Below are positions 30,614-49,597 of a stretch of DNA of 64,000 nt, piece after piece. Location: assembly GCA_018417955.1 (NCBI GenBank), contig JACTVC010000013.1, forward strand, positions 1,262,633 through 1,326,632, written 5' to 3'. The stretch is from Laccaria trichodermophora (taxonomy: Eukaryota; Basidiomycota; Agaricomycetes; Agaricales; Hydnangiaceae). The position numbers and the translations under genes are program-made. The notes under the pieces were generated by a model, which ran no database searches, had not been told where the DNA came from, and saw nothing but the letters and a program-made list of their open reading frames with translations. How positions within the stretch are numbered: the first letter of the stretch is position 1; the number at the start of each line of letters is the position of its first letter.

Positions 30614-33339
30614 ATGGCTAATGCTATACAGGACTTCCTCCAAATTATCCGTATCGCTTTTGAACGCGGTCACCTCACTCCGCGATCCCTCCTGGTTTCC
30701 GGAGCTGCGCTTGCTCTCCTGATCCGTCTCGTCTTCAAGCGACCGAGATCCCGTTACATATCCAACCTCGAACAGGTGGGTAGACGCGTCGGTTTGAATA
30801 CGACTGCGAGGGATGGAAATTGGGAGTATGATATCATCATCGTTGGCGGAGGTATGCTTTGCAACCGAGAGGGTAGAACCCCTAATTATAGTCTATCGCA
30901 GGTACTTCGGGATGTGCACTGGCTGCCCGTCTTTCCGAAGACCCAAACATCCGAGTATTACTGCTTGAAGCTGGAGGAAGGTATGTCGCGGTTTCTATCC
31001 ATCTGTTCTACTGAACGTGACATTTCATTGATTCAGTGGACGCGCATTAAGTGACAGCCGAACCCCAATTGGCTACGGAGGGCTCTTCTTCACTAAACAT
31101 GTCTACCCTTTCCGAACCGAGCCTCAAGCAGCAGCAAATGGGAAGGAGAAATTTTGGCCCAGAGGTAAGCCCCGCTATTGCCCCAAGCACTTAGGAGCTA
31201 ATCCTTGACTATCGCAGCCAAGATGCTAGGGGGTTGTTCCTCCATCAACGCCCAGATGTGATTGATCCCCTTCACCCTATCTTACGCCGCTGACACGTTG
31301 AGTTAGGGCTCAATATGGCGCCCCTGGGGACTTTGACCAGTGGGCATCCTACGCTGGTGACAAGTCATGGGCCTGGAGCAACTTTTCTCGGTAAGCAGCG
31401 CGCATAATCGAGTCTGTTGAAACGGCTGATTTGCCACAGGTACTTCACGAAGTTTGAGAAATTCAACCCACATCCAGACTACCCTCTCGTGAATGCAACA
31501 GTCAGGGGTAATTCTGGTCCAGTAAATGTGGGATATTTCAATACCGTTACGAACGCCTCCAAAGCATTCGTCAAGGCTTGCGTTGGAGTCAACATTCCTT
31601 TCACACCCGACTTTAATGGCCCAAATGGAACTTTGGGTGCTAGCCGGGTACGTTATTCATCTTTTTCATTTCGGAGTTTGTTCTGAACTTTTCTAGATCA
31701 GTAGGTGGAATTCTAACAAACCACTGATACCTAAATTAACCCCGCAGATAGTGACATACGTGGACAAGAAGTATCGACGAGTCTCGAGCGAGACAGCGTA
31801 CCTGACACCTGAAGTCCTCGCACGGAAGAACTTGACGGTTGCCGTCAACGCTACAGTCACCCGCGTGCTTTTTGAAACATCTGAAGCTGGCGTACCTCGT
31901 GCTGTAGGTGTCGAGTTCGCCAACTCCGATGCAAGCCCCCGGTATCAAGCCAGAGCCAAAAAGGAGGTGATCCTTTCGTGAGTCTGCGTTTTTTCACCGA
32001 AATATCACCGTCTTCATACAAATCTAATTAGTGGTGGTGCTATTCACTCTCCCCATGTTCGTCTTTCTTGCTTGGCTTGTTTGTTTTTGGATATGTAACA
32101 ATCGCCCCGCTAGATCCTCTTAATCTCTGGCATTGGTCCTGCTGCCCAACTCGAGAGGCGTGGCATCCAAGTCATCAAAGACCTTCCAGGTGTCGGCCAG
32201 AACCTCGTGGACCACCCCGTCGTGGATATGTACTTTAAAGACAAACTCAATAACTCTGCCAAGTACTTGAGGCCGAAATCTTTCTGGGACGTGGTGAAAT
32301 TGACATCTGCGATCGTGCAGTATCATATTTTGGGCACTGGGGGACCATTGGCGATGAATGTATGCAGTTTTTTTTCTTTTCTTTCTTTTGAGGTCCTTTG
32401 GTATTGATTTCTGTTGTAATATAGTTTGGCGAATCGGCTGCTTTCATCCGCTCAGATGATCCTGATGTCTTTCCTACTCAGGACTTCCCAGAGAAGCTCC
32501 TGGATAGTACATCAGCGAAGGATAGCCCTGATCTAGAGCTTTTCTCTACACCTTTTGCATACAAAGTGGGTCATTCCTTTGTTCAGCATCCATGCATGAG
32601 ATTCTTATGAGCGTCACTTGTAGGAGCACGGTCGTGTCTTCTTTGACGTCCATACATTCGCGCTCCATGTCTACTTACTGAGGTATGGTGTCTTTCAAGT
32701 GTCTACAGGCGTGAAACCTTTTATGCGCTCCTTAGACCAACAAGCACCGGTGCCGTACTTCTCAAATCTTCAAATCCATGGGAACTACCAAGCGTCAATC
32801 CAAAGCAAGTTCACCACTTCTCCCCTTCCTTCCCTCCCTCCACCCTACTTACCCTCTCCTCTCCCCTCCTCCAGCTACCTATCCACAGAAGAAGACATAA
32901 AAAAACTCATCCGCGGCGTCCGGCTCTGCCTCCAAATCGCGCAAACGCAACCCCTCGCTGAGCTCCTCGACCACGAATTCACGCGGGCCGACCTCGACCA
33001 CGAGCTCCACCTTAAATCCGACGAGGAGCTGGAAGCCGTCATCCGCGAGCGCGTGGAGACGGTGTATCACCCTACGACGACCTGTCGGATGGGGCCGGAT
33101 CCGGAGAAGGGGGATGTGGTTGATGCGGGGCTGAGGGTTTATGGTGTGGAGGGTTTGAGAGTGTGTGATGCGTCGATTTTTCCGTTCATTGTTTCGGGTC
33201 ATACGGTTTGTGACTTTTTTTTTTTTTTTGTGGCATGGGTTAGTGTTGATTTTTTCATTTTTTCGGAAAGGCTGGAGCTTGTTATGCTATTGCGGAGAAA
33301 CTTGCTGATGATAGCAAGGCTGAGTATGGGTCGGCTTGA
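30614..33339 (+). CDS. GMC family FAD-dependent oxidoreductase
   Basis: A flavoenzyme of the glucose-methanol-choline family that oxidises alcohols or sugars. ATG 30614 starts a leader with a hydrophobic segment ([17 protein letters not shown]), a likely membrane anchor. The FAD motif [20 protein letters not shown] is split by an intron in the glycine loop. Next come VLLLEAGG, then [18 protein letters not shown] (PS00623-like region) and, downstream, [18 protein letters not shown] (second GMC signature). The C-terminal domain has [11 protein letters not shown] with the catalytic His, then a block ending [20 protein letters not shown]. About twelve exons join in frame. The intron at 32815-32874 uses a GC donor (GCAAGT), joining WELPSVNPN to [10 protein letters not shown]. 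The stop is TGA 33337-33339. The length and motifs resemble aryl-alcohol oxidase/choline dehydrogenase-like members; the substrate is unknown. Confidence 0.9.
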
Positions 33340-33962
33340 GGGCAGCTTGTGTGCTACAGCAGCAATATGGTTTGGCTTGGGAACTGAATACGTCTTTTTC
33401 TGTACAGTACTTGTAACTTGTCAACTTCTGGGTGGATCCGTTTCATTTGAGTCCAGGACTATACGCATTGAAACGCTCAGACTCCAACGAATGTTTATGT
33501 GTTTTCGAAATTTGCATTTCATTGCCTCTGTCTAACTCCTCCACAAAACACAAGTATGTAATAGAACGAAGTCAAAAGTATGTTGTCTACGTATTTAGTG
33601 TCCCCCTAAATGTAAAAGGAAGCACTGCAGCAGAAAAAAGTGTTCTGATGAATGTGAATGCCAGTTGTCAAATGATGATAATGGTGCGGTTGAATGATAA
33701 TGATATTGTCGTCATTAATGGAGGAGGACAGTATACTGAAGGGTGGAAATGTGGTGCTGAGTGGTGGAAATGGTTTGGTGAATGGCGATCGCGAGAAGGG
33801 AGACGACCGCGAGGTTGAGGTGTCGCAAGATTCTCATAAAAATGCATGCTCTAGAGGGGATAGTCAATGAGTATCAGAGAAGAAAGGAGCAGCAGAAGGA
33901 GACTCACGATGTTCTAGTGTACAGATGTAGTCGTCAATGCTGGATGAGAGATGAAAAGCGTC
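33340..33962. other. Convergent intergenic region
   Basis: 3' flanks of the GMC gene (plus) and the pheromone precursor gene (minus). It is rich in ATG/TGATAATG-like simple sequence near 33640-33740. No gene was recognised. Confidence 0.5.
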
Positions 33963-34082
33963 TCATGCGATGACGCAATAGGCATTGTTGCCTGAGCCGC
34001 TGGATTCCTCGTCGACGGGTGCTTGTGATGAGATGTCCTCAGCCTTAGCCGCGAGCGAGAAGTAAGTGGTGAACGAGTCCAT
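33963..34082 (-). CDS. Farnesylated mating-pheromone precursor (CaaX type)
   Basis: An uninterrupted 39-codon gene: ATG at 34082, TGA at 33963-33965. The product starts MDSFTTYFSL, the MDxFTT opening common in mushroom pheromone precursors, and ends with the CaaX box CVIA. Such precursors are farnesylated and carboxymethylated on the Cys and cut inside the N-terminal part to release a lipopeptide of about 9-15 residues. Here an acidic site (VDEES) precedes SGSGNNAYC, the probable mature peptide. A TATAAAT box lies 95 bases upstream. The size (39 aa) is typical of the family. No STE3-type receptor gene lies in this window, so this could be the edge of a B mating-type locus or one of the orphan pheromone genes found outside it. 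It was judged from start motif, length and CaaX end together. Confidence 0.88.
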   Translation of the reverse strand: MDSFTTYFSLAAKAEDISSQAPVDEESSGSGNNAYCVIA

Positions 34083-34176
34083 GTCTTTGGGAGGATGTTG
34101 CGAGGGTTGCAAAAAGGCGGATGAATTCAAGCAGAGGGCTTTACTGGCTTGAAAATCCGAACGCTTTTCCCTCTGA

Positions 34177-34183
34177 ATTTATA
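34177..34183 (-). promoter_or_regulatory. TATA box of the pheromone precursor gene
   Basis: TATAAAT on the minus strand, 95 bases upstream of the pheromone ATG, a usual distance for a TATA element with a short leader. Confidence 0.55.
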
Positions 34184-41994: not shown

Positions 41995-42805
41995 TCAACC
42001 ATTCAGAAAAATGCACACCCACTGGTATAGAAGGTTCGTCTCTTCTGTCGCAAAGCTGGCCTTTAACTCGTCCTCTGTGAAGTTGCATGCTGGAAATAGG
42101 ATATTATCAGCGTCAATTGAAACCTCAAGAAAAGCCGCTTACAAGTTATCAAGAAGTATCCTCCTGGCTTCAACAATCTCGTCACCCGTCCTGGATATTT
42201 TTCTACGGGAGACTTCCCATTCTCGTCTTTTTGACCTAAAGCAATAGCGTCGTGGGTGCCTTTGTCCATCAAGACGTCCCAAACACCAGGTTCGCCCGCT
42301 CCCTGTGTAAAATCCAAAGCTTTAGGTTCATCCTTCAGAAAATCGCATTCGCTGAACGAGATGTTTGAGGCGCCTGCTCCCCGTTTGTTGGCAATTTCCT
42401 TCGCAAGGGAAACTGCGCCTCGGCTGTAGTCTATACCCGAGAGCGTAATAGCGTCGTAGCCAGCATCGAGGAGGCCGAACAACAGCGTTCCATTTCCACT
42501 ACCCACTTCCAAGATTGAGGCGTTGGACGAAGAAGGAACGTGTTCAAGGGCCCATTCGACCATCTTTTCTACACTCTCTGTGCCAAACCTACAACTTTTC
42601 TTAGTCCTGTTATCCTTCTCTATGACACGATCGGATAACATGCCAGATTTCACCTTCATCTCCGATCTCCTCGAAATTCGCGAGCTCTTCTTCGTAAACA
42701 CTGTCCCAACTACCAGCGATGCCGATTGGCAGGTGCGAATGCTCGGACGACTGACGAGACGTACTGTTCCTTGGTTCCGAGCTTTGAGGGCTGTAAATCA
42801 CTCAT
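41995..42805 (-). CDS. Efm4/METTL10-like eEF1A lysine methyltransferase
   Basis: A cytosolic SAM-dependent methyltransferase of the family that modifies a lysine of translation elongation factor 1A. ATG 42805 starts a short exon MSDLQPSKLGTKEH; an intron (GTACGT to GGTAG) gives WDSVYEEELANFEEIGDEGE and IW. The next intron (42589-42643) has a GC donor and yields the family motif EIWFG, then TESVEKMVEWAL. The SAM loop is ILEVGSGNGTLLFGLL, and the acidic SAM-ribose contact is SGIDYS. WDVLMDKGTHDAIAL matches the family D-K-G-T-x-D motif. An intron near the end joins YFLIT to SCNFTEDELKASF, and the stop is TGA 41995-41997. Length is about 240 residues, normal for Efm4. It is convergent with Sgd1/NOM1. 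Confidence 0.88.
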
Positions 42806-43464: not shown

Positions 43465-43842
43465 AATATGCGCAAGAGCGATCGAATTATGTGTTCCCAC
43501 GCTTTTTGACGCTTAACCTCAAGTTCAAGATGCCAATTCTCGCCCAATTTTGATTGGAGAGAAATCTCTACCCACCGTAAAGTCACTAACACTTGTTGGA
43601 CCCTCAAATTTGGTGCGCGGCTGAAATGATAGCCCTTGGAATATCTGAATTGGTATGTGCTCCTCCAACACTCATTGACGCTCAAGATTCAAATGAACGC
43701 GGGAAGGTGGTGGTTGTAGAGACCAACTTCTCCAGGTGATCCGCAGGAAAGCCTTTCGACGGCACGACGATGCCGCATGTCAGCATGGGTTATTTAAACG
43801 CGTCCCATTCTCGGCGCTATCTCTCACTACATTCCCTAAATC
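43465..43842. other. Divergent promoter region
   Basis: Lies between Pam18 (minus) and helicase 1 (plus), so it carries both promoters. No coding exon was recognised. Confidence 0.5.
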
Positions 43843-46572
43843 ATGGCTGGAGGCAGTAAAACCTCCACGATCGAGCAAGAAATCTACAAGGAGGCTCACC
43901 CGCCTATACGTGTGACTGAAATCCAGGAAAGCCGCATTTCCTCATCTACAATCGACGACTTTATTCGTAGTGTCAACGGTGGTCCTGTTGGCTTGGCGCC
44001 AGCATACGGTTCCAAAGGCGTGTTACACACCCTCGCCATAGCTTCGTTATCGGAGGTTATAATCGTGAAGATTTGTGCGCTAAAGCCTTCCTCGCGAACA
44101 AGAAACTCCAAAAAACCAAGCTCCCCATCCACAAGTCAGAATCCTTTGCGTGACAAGATTCTGTGTCGCCCCGGCACCTCAACGTATGCATTCAGAATGG
44201 ATAGGCTTGTTGGAGCTCTATTTCTCGATGCTGGAATTCGATTGAACTCAGCAGTGGACCTGTTGTCTGTGTCCAATGACGATCGTAACGCCCTGGAGTC
44301 CCTTATGGCGTCCCTTGGTGGTATTATGGTGTTGAACAAAACCAATGTTATACGCCTATTCCGCGATAATGAATCGATGAAGACCCCCAGCACATCGACC
44401 GCACTCCAGGCATGGGCCGCATGTAGAGCAGCTACACTGCCATCGATGATAGAAGACGTTTTTCAGATTCCAAGAATCAATACCGGCTTGTTCCCTAAAA
44501 AGGTGTGTAGGAACATGCACGTTGTAGGCATTTTTTCATCGAGATCATAGCACCTTCAAGTAATTTCTAAAACCAACCGCGACGCAAGCCGTCTTGTCGC
44601 ATTGAAGCCTGACGTTGTGAAGAATGATGTTAGCAAGGAGGTCATAATCAGGAAAGGCGAACTCAATGTCGTTTCGGTCCGCTTCAAGAGCAAGGTGAGG
44701 AGGACTGCAACTCATCAGGTACGCTTGCCCAGATCTACGACTCGTTGCGTATTAAAAATGGGGTGCCACAGTATCTAAAGATAAAAACGAGAGAAAACGG
44801 AAAAGTCTCGAATATTCGGGGGCAGACCAATGGAACCCAAGGCAGAACATCAACCGTCAGCGTTAATGCGCCTATGAAAGGCTCTATTGTCTCCATATAT
44901 ACGGTTGGTAAAGAGGCACCAACGACCTGCGAGACCTTGCGTAGCAACATCCTTTTGCGGATTTTGCAAGGAACCGACGATATCATGTCTCATCCATTTG
45001 TCCAGAGCATTTGGCTGCCTTCAGAAAAGATATCCTGGCCCTCAGTCCCGTCTTTGGCGCCCCTTACTTTGTACTTTCCTTCCGAACGCACCCTAAACGT
45101 TTCTCAAGAAAGGGCCGTGAATTTAGTTCTGTCACGCAAGCATAAGGACCGCATCGCTCTCATTCACGGACCTCCTGGGACGGGCAAAACCACTGTCATT
45201 GCTGCCAGTGTGACTAGCGTTATGGCTTCAGCTAGTGATAAAACAACCATATGGCTGGTGGCACAATCGAATGTCGCTGTCAAGAATATCGCCGAAAAAC
45301 TTGTGGAACTCAAATTTACAAAGTTCAGGATACTTGTTTCAAAAGATTTCCATTTCGAATGGTAAGTACTTCGATTTACATTGTACTTTAATTTGATTCC
45401 TGAGTTTCACGATATCCACCATATTCAGGCATGAGCATCTGTACGGCAAAATCAACCAGAATCTCATCCGATCAGACGACTTTGGCACTGATTTGACCAC
45501 AGCTAGTCGACAGTTATCAGACTCTAGAGTTGTCCTCTGTACGCTTAGCATGATGTCTCATGAGAGACTCACAGAGATTGCACAAATCGTCCCTCCAAAA
45601 CTAATTATATTTGATGAAGCCAGTCAAATCGAGGTCGGCGACTACTTCCCTCTGATCTCTCGGTTTAGAAATTCGATCAACAAACTTGTTTTCATTGGAG
45701 ACGACAAACAATGTAAGTCCATTAAACGTTATTTGGTTTTCCTGCTGATCAGCTTCAGTGCCACCATACGGACACGCCGATATCAGTGAACTTCAGAGCA
45801 TCTTCGAGGCATCGCATCTTCGTGGGCCTGCAGTCCTTCTTGATACACAGTGTATGTTTTCCTTCTTGCAGGAATCAAAACAACTGTGACGCGTTGAATG
45901 TAGACCGAATGCCCATCCCGATCGGCAATTTCATTTCAACTCACGTTTACAAAGGTCGACTCAAAAGCGAGCATCACTTACGATCACCACTCAAGACCTG
46001 CCGTTTCGCTGATATTCACAGGGGGGTCGAATTATCGAAAGGTCGCAGCTGGGTCGTAAGTGCTTGAAACCGTTCATATCTCTTTTTTTTAATGGCCAAC
46101 AGAATGATCTTGAAGTTGAAGCCGTCATAGCGATCGCAAGGAAGTTGGACAAGCATCACATGTCTTATAGGATAATCACTCCCTACGACCCTCAACGTTC
46201 AAACTTAGAGAAAGCTCTGAAGAACGCAAACCTCCCATGGGAAGATAAATGCTTCAACATTGATGCGTTTCAAGGTATCGTCGCATATATCTTCTGGAGA
46301 ACATAGCTGACCACCTACTGTCAGGAAACGAGGCTGATTATATCATTATTTCCTTGGTTCGTTCTGAGAAGTTAGGCTTTTTGAGGGAGGACCGGCGGGT
46401 GAACGTCATGTTGACGCGCTGTAAGAAGGGCATGATCATTTGCACGAGTCGCAAATTCATCGAGTCAAAAGCTCAAAAGTCTTTGGTTGGGAAGTTGGCT
46501 AGCGCGCTCGGTGACGAGACTTGGGTCGAAAGCCGTGAAGTCTTGCATGGGACATTTGTACCCTTCATCTAA
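43843..46572 (+). CDS. Upf1/NAM7-type superfamily 1 helicase (copy 1 of tandem pair)
   Basis: An SF1B RNA/DNA helicase of the Upf1-like group. ATG 43843; about 220 residues of an N-terminal region (ILCRPGTSTYAFRMDRLVGA, NSAVDLLSVS, ALQAWAACRAATL) come before the motor. Exons join in frame to the motor: motif I HGPPGTGKTTVIAAS, Ia WLVAQSNVAVKNIAEKL, motif II FDEASQIEVGDYFPL, III IGDDKQLPPYGHAD, IV DTQYRMPIPIGNF, V IDAFQGNEADYIIISLVRSE and VI RRVNVMLTRCKKGMI. The protein ends GTFVPFI at TAA 46570-46572, with about 860 residues. All catalytic motifs are intact. The N-terminal region is shared with the next gene and is discussed in the findings. The DEAS form of motif II and the LPP after GDDKQ fit Upf1/SEN1/ZNFX1-like helicases, but the exact pathway is unknown. 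Confidence 0.9.
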
Positions 46573-46792
46573 CACAACGAGGCAATTATGGCTGTACCTT
46601 GAACCTTTTTCTCTACCTAGTTGATGTCGATTGAGCTTTATGAGAGCATTTCAAATTGTCCGATTGCAATAATGTCCGAAAGCGGAACCAGCTTAACGTT
46701 CCGCCAATAATTATAGACTTTGACTGCTTGCTGCCTTGAGGCAGCTAGGCGCCGCGTATGGCCCGCGATTGGTTCTTTCTCTTACATCCATC

Positions 46793-49597
46793 ATGGCCTC
46801 CCGCAGGCCCCAGGTGATGCTGCAGAATATCCTGGACGGTCCCGAACCGGCTCTCAACCAACATATCCCGATCCACACAATCCGCGAACTCGATATTCCT
46901 ACATCAGATCTTTTCGAAACTTTTGACCACGCTCGCCCGCTTGGCATCTCGCCTGGGTTCTCTGAGAAAGGCCGTCTCAACGCGCTCGCTGTCGCTGATG
47001 ACAAAAACTGTCGGATTATTGAATTTACGCAGCCAAAGTCGCCCAAGTCGCAGAGAGGTGGAAACAACAGGCCGCCGCCTGGCCTACCTCAGGCTCCGCG
47101 CGACGTTAAAGGAAGAACGCTCCTTGAAGATAAGATTCTTTGTCGTCCTGTGAGCGACCTACTTGCCTTTGACATCGGCCCACTGTCCATGTCGCTCTAC
47201 TGTGATACGAATCTACGGATTACCAACGCCGTTGACGTTCAATCAGCCTTTTCTGCGGTCGACCGAAAGCCGTTAACTGCGATCAAGCAGTCTGTCGGGG
47301 AGGACATCCAAGTGAAGAAGGAGAACATTGTAACCCTCTTCAGCAACCCGGTCTACAGCGCAGAGGATCGAAAAAGTACCACGGATTTGGCTATGAGAGC
47401 TTGGGTCGCTCAATTTCTGGCAGGGTATGGGAATGGGGTCGAGACGTTCGAGAAAGTCCCGAGGATTGACACAAAGAAGCTTAGTTCTCTGGTAAGCCTT
47501 GTCTTCATCTTCATCTTCAGCGGCATTATCTACATTTTTTACAGGTTCTCGATATGATTGGCAAGATCGCCAACGATGCACAGCGGCTTGACCACTTGAA
47601 ACCCCATCAGCAAACCCATCGCATTCAAGGCATCCACGTAGGCTCTCAAGTCAATTCCCTAAGCTATGGTGATAAATTTCGGTCAGGAAAGGTATCGTAT
47701 CTCAATTATCTACCATCCACGTGCTCTAATAAAACTTCGTCATGTATAGAATGTTCGTGTAGAGCTCCAGAATGAACGTGGGATCTTCGTTACCCCCGGC
47801 ATCACAGCGGAAGTTGAGGGTAGATCTGCAAACCTAAACACCAGACAGACAATAGGCGAGAATGCAATTCTGAAGGTCATTACCATTGGTCGTGATGACC
47901 CCACCACTGCTGAGGCTCAACGAGCTGCAACTGTTCTTCGCATTCTTCAAGGCTCTGGAGAGCTCCTCAATGACAGTCCCTGGATCCAGAACATTTGGTT
48001 TCCACCTGCTGATGGGCTTCCTCTTGTGTGGCCCAAGGAGTGGAAGTCAACCACAAAGCCATTGAGTTTACCCCCCAAGCCTCCTTCCCCTTCCTCTGAA
48101 TCAAAGCCACCTCTTAGTCTCAATGGTTCCCAACAGAAAGCTGTCAATGCAATGATGTCACCCAAGGACGATCATCGAATTGTACTTGTTCAAGGTCCAC
48201 CTGGTACTGGAAAGACATCAGTCATTGCAGCTTATGTTCGCTATGCTGTTGAGAAGGGTCAAGGGGGTATTTGGCTGGTGGCACAATCTAATGTAGCAGT
48301 GAAGAACATTGCTGAGAAGCTGATCTCCACTGGGTTTTCCAACTGGAGGCTCTTAGTCTCCAAAGATTTCCATTGTGTCTGGTCAGTCATCTTTAAGAAT
48401 ATATAATATTTTGACCCTTATATATCTATCTTTTCTAGGCATGAACACCTCTATCACAAAGTTCAGGCAAACATGATTCGCTCAGATGAGTTCAGTTTTG
48501 TTGGGGCCTCCCGCTTCAAAAACTGTCAGGTCATGTTATGCACTTTAAGCATGCTCTCAAACCAACTCATCCCCAAATTCACTCATCATATACCAATGAA
48601 AAGTTTGATTGTGGATGAAGCAAGTCAGATTGAGGTGGGAAACTACATTTCTGTATTTACAACCTTCCAAAGCCTGCGGAAGGCATGTTTTATTGGAGAT
48701 GATAAGCAATGTGAGTGTTTATCTCCATTCTTCTACCTGCCCACTAATATAGCTCTTCATATTGACAGTACCACCATATGGCCAAGAAGATCTTCAAGAT
48801 CTCCAAAGTATCTTTGAGATATCTCACTTGAACAAGCATGTTGTATTTCTTGATACTCAGTGTAAGTTTTCTTTTGAATATTATCCTGTATACTAATGAA
48901 CCTGACCTCTCTAGATCGTATGCCACCTCAAATTGGAGATATCATCTCTGAGGCAGTCTATGATGCCAAATTGAAATCAAACCCTTTGCATCCAATTACT
49001 GAAAAAACAACTGCCTGCTACTTTATTGATGTACAGGCTGGCAAGGAAACAAAAGTGAACAATTCATTCAAGGTATGGTCTTATCCTTTTTTTTTTTTTC
49101 CCTTCTGCTCTCTGATCAAGCTTTCTACCCAGAATGAAGCAGAGATGGAAGCAGTTATCAAACTTGCCCAAAAGCTTCAAGACCAAGAGAAGAATTACCG
49201 CATCATTACTCCATACCTTCTCCAGAGAAGCACTATCGAAAACTACATGATGAGTGTTGATGGCCTGGATTGGAAAGATAAGTGTTTTGCTGTTGATTCC
49301 TTCCAAGGCTTGTTCTTTTCCTTTTTCTTTTGTTCAACATATCATCTGATTTAATTTATAGGGAATGAAGAAGACTATATCATTATCTCCCTTGTCCGTT
49401 CTCGTGAACTGGGCTTCTTGAACAATTTACGCCGCACAAATGTCATGCTTACACGCTGCAAGCTTGGCATGTTCATCGTCACCAGCAAGCAATTTCTGGA
49501 TGGCCCTGGATCCAAGTGTTTGGTTGGAACATTGAAGGATAAGTTTGGGCCAGAGGCTTGGTTGACCATGGAGGATATTGAGGAGGAGAGGTTCTGA
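46793..49597 (+). CDS. Upf1/NAM7-type superfamily 1 helicase (copy 2 of tandem pair)
   Basis: A tandem paralogue of the preceding gene, 220 bases downstream on the same strand. ATG 46793 (MASRRPQVMLQNILDGPEPA). The N-terminal region again holds KILCRPVSDLLAFDIGPLSM, NAVDVQSAFSAVDRKPL and AMRAWVAQFL. The motor carries QGPPGTGKTSVIAAY, WLVAQSNVAVKNIAEKL, VDEASQIEVGNYISVF, IGDDKQLPPYGQED, DTQYRMPPQIGDI, VDSFQGNEEDYIIISLVRSR and RRTNVMLTRCKLGM. The stop is TGA 49595-49597; length is about 840 residues. Introns sit at matching places in both copies (after FHFEW/FHCVW, after GDDKQ, after DTQ, after FQG), supporting duplication. The 3' half from about 47940 is strikingly poor in CpG, whereas the 5' half is normal. 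Confidence 0.9.

What the first reader, a model, noticed from the sequence alone, without database searches (positions are those of the whole stretch)
33963..34082. Unreported-length mating-pheromone precursor gene ending in CVIA
A 39-codon minus-strand frame combines three independent marks of mushroom pheromone precursors: it opens MDSFTT, is 39 residues long, and ends in the CaaX box CVIA. A TATA box lies 95 bases upstream. At 39 codons it falls under usual ORF-length cut-offs, so automatic annotation would miss it. Established knowledge: CaaX precursors of this type are farnesylated and act on STE3 receptors. Inferred: the mature peptide is SGSGNNAYC after cleavage at an acidic site.
Basis: partly seen in the sequence, partly recalled or inferred. 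Interest (0 to 1): 0.85.

Follow-up and report, generated by a model that had tools for sequence, protein, structure and literature searches.

The report
Laccaria non-mating pheromone-like peptide gene
This is a real, tiny mushroom gene for a probably lipid-tagged signal peptide, but it belongs to a known group of pheromone-like genes that lie away from the mating-type genes, and this genome carries more than two dozen of them spelling the same peptide core.

Summary
The frame is real: window 33963-34082 (-), 39 codons, MDSFTT...CVIA, Pfam Pheromone above cut-off, not expected by chance. The genome is Laccaria, by its contig statistics L. trichodermophora EF-36. The interpretation needs three corrections. 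(1) The length is not unreported: precursors of 39-65 aa are in print, and a 39-aa relative is 85% identical. (2) It does not look like a mating-type gene: no STE3 match lies on its contig; the STE3 cluster is on C9. Its core fits the non-mating-type pheromone-like consensus reported for L. bicolor, GGGSGNNAYC. (3) It is one of 28 intact copies (27 if two identical loci are one) on 11 contigs, all coding GNNAYC, in 18 DNA spellings: the peptide is under selection. The window copy is an isolated member; only its core codons align with other copies. TATA box, leader motif and a predicted 57-nt 3'UTR intron fit a working gene; expression was not testable. Most likely a farnesylated self-signal for a non-mating STE3-like receptor; receptor and role are inferred. 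New member of a known kind. Side find: many relatives in other Agaricales carry two peptide units.

The parts
33963..34082 (-). 39-codon precursor ORF MDSFTTYFSLAAKAEDISSQAPVDEESSGSGNNAYCVIA, stop included
   Evidence: Pfam PF08015 27.5 bits, cut-off 22; 85% identical 39-aa relative P0016
33975..34004 (-). likely mature peptide SSGSGNNAYC (residues 27-36); N-terminal cut inferred
   Evidence: lines up with published consensus GGGSGNNAYC; GNNAYC invariant in 27 genes
34005..34013 (-). acidic run DEE (residues 24-26), presumed N-terminal processing site
   Evidence: sequence; acidic or charged pairs 10-15 residues before the end are described for the class; cut not tested
33966..33977 (-). CaaX box CVIA, presumed farnesylation signal
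   Evidence: sequence; lipidation not tested
34176..34183 (-). TATA box TATAAATT
   Evidence: TATA[AT]A within 130 bases upstream in 20 of 27 family genes against 2 of 27 in a stretch further up
34089..34097 (-). leader motif CATCCTCCC
   Evidence: within 1 mismatch in 14 of 27 genes, shuffled mean 0.76; absent from all genes of the 31-aa and 32-aa groups
33851..33907 (-). predicted 57-base 3'UTR intron GTGAGT...CTAG
   Evidence: strict scan hits 14 of 27 genes, controls 0, 2 and 1 of 27; no transcript seen

Best explanation
The frame is a gene of the non-mating-type pheromone-like precursor class of Agaricales. The 39-residue precursor would be farnesylated on Cys36, trimmed of VIA, carboxymethylated and cut near the DEE run, giving about SSGSGNNAYC(farnesyl)-OMe, then exported and sensed by a STE3-like receptor outside mating-type control. 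Since every nucleus of this genome holds the same core many times over, the peptide can hardly tell mates apart; the likeliest role is a self-signal between hyphae of the species. Shown here: the gene, its family, its copies, selection on the peptide core, distance from the STE3 genes. Inferred: expression, processing, receptor and role.
For: Pfam hit; chance expectation 0.01; 28 exact-motif loci, each with an intact frame, on 11 contigs; GNNAYC constant in 27 genes with 18 DNA forms, and pN/pS lower in the last 12 codons than in the pro-region in 5 of 5 same-length groups; match to the published L. bicolor non-mating consensus; no STE3 on C5; TATA, leader and 3'UTR intron above controls, the intron being a trait of A. 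bisporus genes of this class; 39-aa relative P0016; ICMT and prenyltransferase matches in the genome. S. commune Brl3/Brl4 overexpression causes avoidance of same-clone colonies, and its authors name self-pheromones as possible ligands (passages).
Against: No transcript, peptide or receptor data. The window copy has SS where other copies mostly have GG, and no flank similarity to any other copy. Weak in the six-frame Pfam scan (20.8 bits). Intron scan misses 13 of 27 genes and the leader motif 13 of 27. The 44-aa group holds two unlike proteins aligned without gaps, so its figures mean little.
Confidence: 0.75

Rival explanations
1. A mating pheromone in the strict sense: it acts on a B-locus STE3 receptor and helps set mating type.
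For: Same precursor architecture and Pfam family as B-locus pheromones.
Against: No STE3 match on C5; three precursors within C9:580001-608000, beside the STE3 cluster, have quite different cores; the same GNNAYC core is coded at 27 other loci.
Confidence: 0.07
2. A relic: an intact-looking copy that is no longer expressed or used.
For: Isolated copy without flank similarity; relatives on the same contig at C5:912-967k are broken by TGA; no expression data.
Against: Intact frame, TATA box and predicted intron; a 39-aa relative elsewhere keeps length and core.
Confidence: 0.12
3. A CaaX peptide that acts inside the cell, or on other organisms, rather than as a signal to its own species.
For: The role of the class is unknown in the passages read.
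Against: Architecture is that of exported pheromone precursors (established knowledge); no direct test.
Confidence: 0.05
4. A chance open frame.
For: Short frames with a bare CaaX-like end are common: mean 3.5 per shuffled window.
Against: With MDxF the mean is 0.01; Pfam hit, paralogues and a close homologue.
Confidence: 0.01

Closest known systems
[quoted passage not shown] bicolor consensus GGGSGNNAYC, C. cinerea GGGSGNGAYC, four A. bisporus genes; PMC8305134, passages)
   Same: Core GSGNNAYC identical over 8 of 10 consensus residues; MDxF start, CaaX end, place away from MAT-B, 3'UTR intron (predicted here)
   Different: SS instead of GG at the start of the core; 28 loci here against four genes in A. 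bisporus; the L. bicolor copy number could not be read
MAT-B lipopeptide pheromones of Agaricomycetes (receptor cassettes, e.g. Rhizopogon, PMC5473757, passages)
   Same: Precursor architecture and expected chemistry
   Different: Those lie beside STE3 genes and have diverse cores; this one has neither feature
P. cinnabarinus precursors (PMC4101180, passages)
   Same: 39-65 aa, MDA/DF start and CaaX end; four of seven resemble non-mating-type precursors
   Different: Sequences not seen
P0016, 39-aa protein of an unnamed source
   Same: Same length, 85% identical
   Different: NGGSGNNAYC core; source organism and gene neighbours unknown

Membership tests
Fungal lipopeptide pheromone precursors (PF08015) | Pfam score over the curated cut-off | tested here: met
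   27.5 bits, cut-off 22
Fungal lipopeptide pheromone precursors (PF08015) | short precursor with MDxF start and C-terminal CaaX | tested here: met
Fungal lipopeptide pheromone precursors (PF08015) | farnesylated, methylated, secreted mature peptide | not testable with these tools
   needs mass spectrometry; ICMT and prenyltransferase matches exist
[quoted passage not shown]
   8 of 10 residues identical
[quoted passage not shown]
   STE3 matches on C9, C1, C36, C22, C17, none on C5 (C5 is 1,423,104 bases)
[quoted passage not shown] bisporus transcripts) | tested here: inconclusive
   57-base GT-AG intron predicted; no transcript
[quoted passage not shown]
   no RNA data at hand
MAT-B mating pheromone | gene beside a STE3 receptor gene | tested here: not met
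MAT-B mating pheromone | core differs between genes or alleles | tested here: not met
   GNNAYC the same in 27 genes; alleles of other strains not seen
MAT-B mating pheromone | activates a receptor of another mating type | not testable with these tools
   needs a receptor assay

The most novel reading that the evidence does not exclude
Laccaria broadcasts one farnesylated peptide (x-x-GSGNNAYC, in one copy x-x-GTGNNAYC) from at least 27 scattered genes as a mating-type-blind 'own kind' signal read by orphan STE3-like receptors, with copy number acting as dosage; the window gene is an old, separately regulated source with a slightly different ligand end (SS).
Probability: 0.35. Interest if true: 0.65.

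Novelty: new member of a known kind. Interest (0 to 1): 0.36.

Why it matters
Non-mating STE3-like receptors are found in many mushrooms and are still orphans; the Schizophyllum authors suggest self-pheromones as ligands (PMC8161036, passages). A peptide core kept constant in 27 genes while its DNA drifts is a strong candidate ligand, short enough to synthesise and test. It also gives a concrete list of small genes of a kind that annotation often misses (PMC5473757, passages).

Tried and rejected
Organism: narrowed to Laccaria by the EFM4-like protein at 42063-42797 (93% to L. amethystina over 61% of the query), then to L. trichodermophora EF-36 by contig statistics in PMC10995626 (77 contigs, 59.06 Mb, largest 5316.68 kb, N50 1464.17 kb; G000 has 77 contigs, 59,027,671 bases, C1 = 5,316,676, C4 = 1,464,168). 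This is inferred from numbers, not read from a record name.

C4 rows with 3 mismatches (GGTCACATCTCC..., 8 of them, plus one variant each with GGTTAC and with GTAGC): one place (C4:565000-565600) was read and has no M[DE]-starting CaaX frame; taken as an unrelated repeat, the others unread. C12:727967 (GNNAYC, then a changed end) was left out of the count, unresolved. C8:1198840 (1 mismatch, a TAG in place of Tyr) and the C5 copies with GNHAYC or GDHAYC were not counted as intact. C21:775850 (a 36-aa frame ending GAGQYAYCVIA) looks like a further gene without the exact motif and is not among the 28. Counts are lower bounds; the genome search scores only its best candidates.

A loose 3'UTR intron scan hit 25 of 28 but had no control and chose another donor at the window gene; it is replaced by the strict scan (14 of 27). 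L057 was dropped (identical to L052 over 3026 bases). One search compared the 28 intact copies only; one search compared the window region with all 71 loci held, the broken C5 copies included.

Papers: PMC8305134, PMC5473757, PMC4101180, PMC12387193, PMC5755439, PMC8970355, PMC3140503, PMC8161036 and PMC10995626 were seen as found passages (PMC10995626 section 16 whole); others only as listings. Two papers likely to list the L. bicolor genes or review the class are not held. Searches and the passages read showed no Laccaria copy number; that is no proof that none is in print.

Full report
What is there. The minus-strand frame at 33963-34082 reads MDSFTTYFSLAAKAEDISSQAPVDEESSGSGNNAYCVIA and stops. 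Pfam calls it a fungal pheromone precursor at 27.5 bits, cut-off 22. Among frames of 25-80 aa in the window it is the only one with both MDxF and a CaaX-like end; 200 dinucleotide-preserving shuffles give a mean of 0.01 such frames. TATAAATT starts 101 bases before the ATG, the motif CATCCTCCC 15 bases before it, and a 57-base GTGAGT...CTAG intron is predicted from 55 bases after the stop codon.

Where it is. The window is G000:C5:1262633-1326632 of a 59.03 Mb, 77-contig genome. An EFM4-like protein of the window is 93% identical to Laccaria amethystina over 61% of the query, and the contig numbers fit L. trichodermophora EF-36, a homokaryotic strain obtained from a fruit body (PMC10995626, passages and section 16). 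A GMC oxidoreductase gene lies next to it on the other strand; its Pfam match covers about 32858-33208.

It is one of many. A pattern for GNNAYC plus a CaaX-like end gave 55 matches at up to 3 mismatches against 11 for the backwards control; 28 are exact. All 28 have an intact MD-starting frame of 31-44 aa, on 11 contigs. Two of them (C12:1717581, C27:7288) are identical over 3026 bases and may be one gene assembled twice, so I count 27 genes with 22 distinct proteins. In the 27 the hexapeptide GNNAYC does not vary but is written in 18 DNA forms. In five of five same-length groups pN/pS is lower in the last 12 codons (0.00, 0.07, 0.00, 0.18, 0.00) than in the pro-region (0.17, 0.12, 0.26, 0.64, 0.41). 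Members of a group share ancestry, and the fourth group holds two unlike proteins aligned without gaps, so these are not clean independent tests. TATA[AT]A occurs within 130 bases upstream in 20 of 27 against 2 of 27 in a stretch further up; the strict 3'UTR intron scan finds 14 of 27 against 0, 2 and 1 of 27 in three place controls and a shuffled mean of 0.9 (maximum 6); the leader motif is found in 14 of 27, shuffled mean 0.76, maximum 4. The other 13 lack each mark at these settings.

The window copy stands apart. It alone is 39 aa. Searched against all 71 loci held, only its last codons (33959-34001) align with other copies, apart from one 19-base chance-level match. One other intact copy (L059, C33:395839) also has no partner of 60 bases or more, while 24 of 28 have one of 300 or more. 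Its best-scoring paralogue is a copy at C5:947643 broken by TGA; the best intact one is C33:403599, E 2.9e-5. A 39-aa protein of an unnamed source (P0016, contig of 165,859 bases) is 85% identical. So it is a diverged member with a likely orthologue, not a fresh duplicate.

Not a mating-type gene, as far as sequence tells. STE3 (PF02076) has 32 exon-level matches, which I group into six genes at C9:582204-605268 and five places on C1 (two), C36, C22 and C17; none on C5. The C9 stretch also holds three precursors with quite different cores, as expected of MAT-B, and a fourth match with stops inside. [quoted passage not shown] bicolor and GGGSGNGAYC in C. cinerea; A. bisporus has four such genes of 44-54 aa, at least three expressed, those with an intron in the 3'UTR (PMC8305134, passages). 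P. cinnabarinus has seven precursors of 39-65 aa, four resembling this class (PMC4101180, passages). That removes the claim of an unreported length.

How it most likely works. From established knowledge of CaaX pheromones: farnesylation of Cys36, removal of VIA, methylation, an N-terminal cut near DEE, export, and sensing by a STE3-type receptor. Pfam ICMT and prenyltransferase matches are present; their genes were not built. Since every nucleus carries the same core many times, the signal can hardly sort mates. In Schizophyllum, overexpressed non-mating receptors Brl3 and Brl4 cause avoidance between colonies of the same clone, and the authors propose self-pheromones as possible ligands (PMC8161036, passages). 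I take a mating-type-blind self-signal as the best reading; receptor and role are inference.

Relatives with two units. Of the 143 homologues listed (the second search was started from two-unit proteins and lists 120 of 151), 82 carry two CaaX-like boxes with the last at the end; in the first search, started from one-unit proteins, 11 of 44 do. The inner box is VVA in 57 and VVS in 15 of 82, followed by H (32), R (21) or Q (21), and 25 residues before the last in 45. The nine residues before the two cysteines are identical in 30 of 63 distinct pairs; 2000 permutations give a mean of 1.0 and a maximum of 5. Relatedness of the proteins is not controlled there, and recent duplication within a gene could also make the units alike. 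Named sources include Hebeloma cylindrosporum, Hypholoma sublateritium and Pholiota. If both units are used, a cut after the inner box is needed. Tandem precursors of red yeasts are a precedent that I recall and did not read here. None of the 28 Laccaria copies is of this kind.

Verdict. A real gene, correctly spotted; class known, function open. The copy number and the constancy of the core are the interesting part.

Noticed in passing
other Agaricales, P0004-P0040 and P0166-P0251: Precursors with two peptide units and an inner CaaX-like box (82 of 143 listed homologues, sampling biased by a two-unit query); the two units tend to be alike within a protein. Suggests that both are used.
   Followed up: partly
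G000:C9:582204-605268 (L001-L011, L067-L069): A six-gene STE3 cluster with three precursor frames, evidently MAT-B. The paper on the matching assembly reports no STE3-like match in L. trichodermophora (PMC10995626 section 16); the Pfam profile finds it.
   Followed up: partly
G000:C5:894214, 912474, 947643, 967368, 986528 (L018, L020, L026): Five related copies about 18-35 kb apart; the three fetched share an in-frame TGA before a GNHAYC or GDHAYC core, so the break seems older than the duplications.
   Followed up: partly
G000:C12:1717581 and C27:7288 (L052, L057): Identical over 3026 bases: assembly duplicate or very recent duplication.
   Followed up: no
G000:C8:1196133-1198865 (L039, L040): Three copies within 2.8 kb in both orientations, one with a stop in the core.
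   Followed up: no
window 43840-49354 (+): Two neighbouring series of similar frames with GPPGTGKT motifs (by eye), perhaps a tandem pair of helicase-like genes.
   Followed up: no
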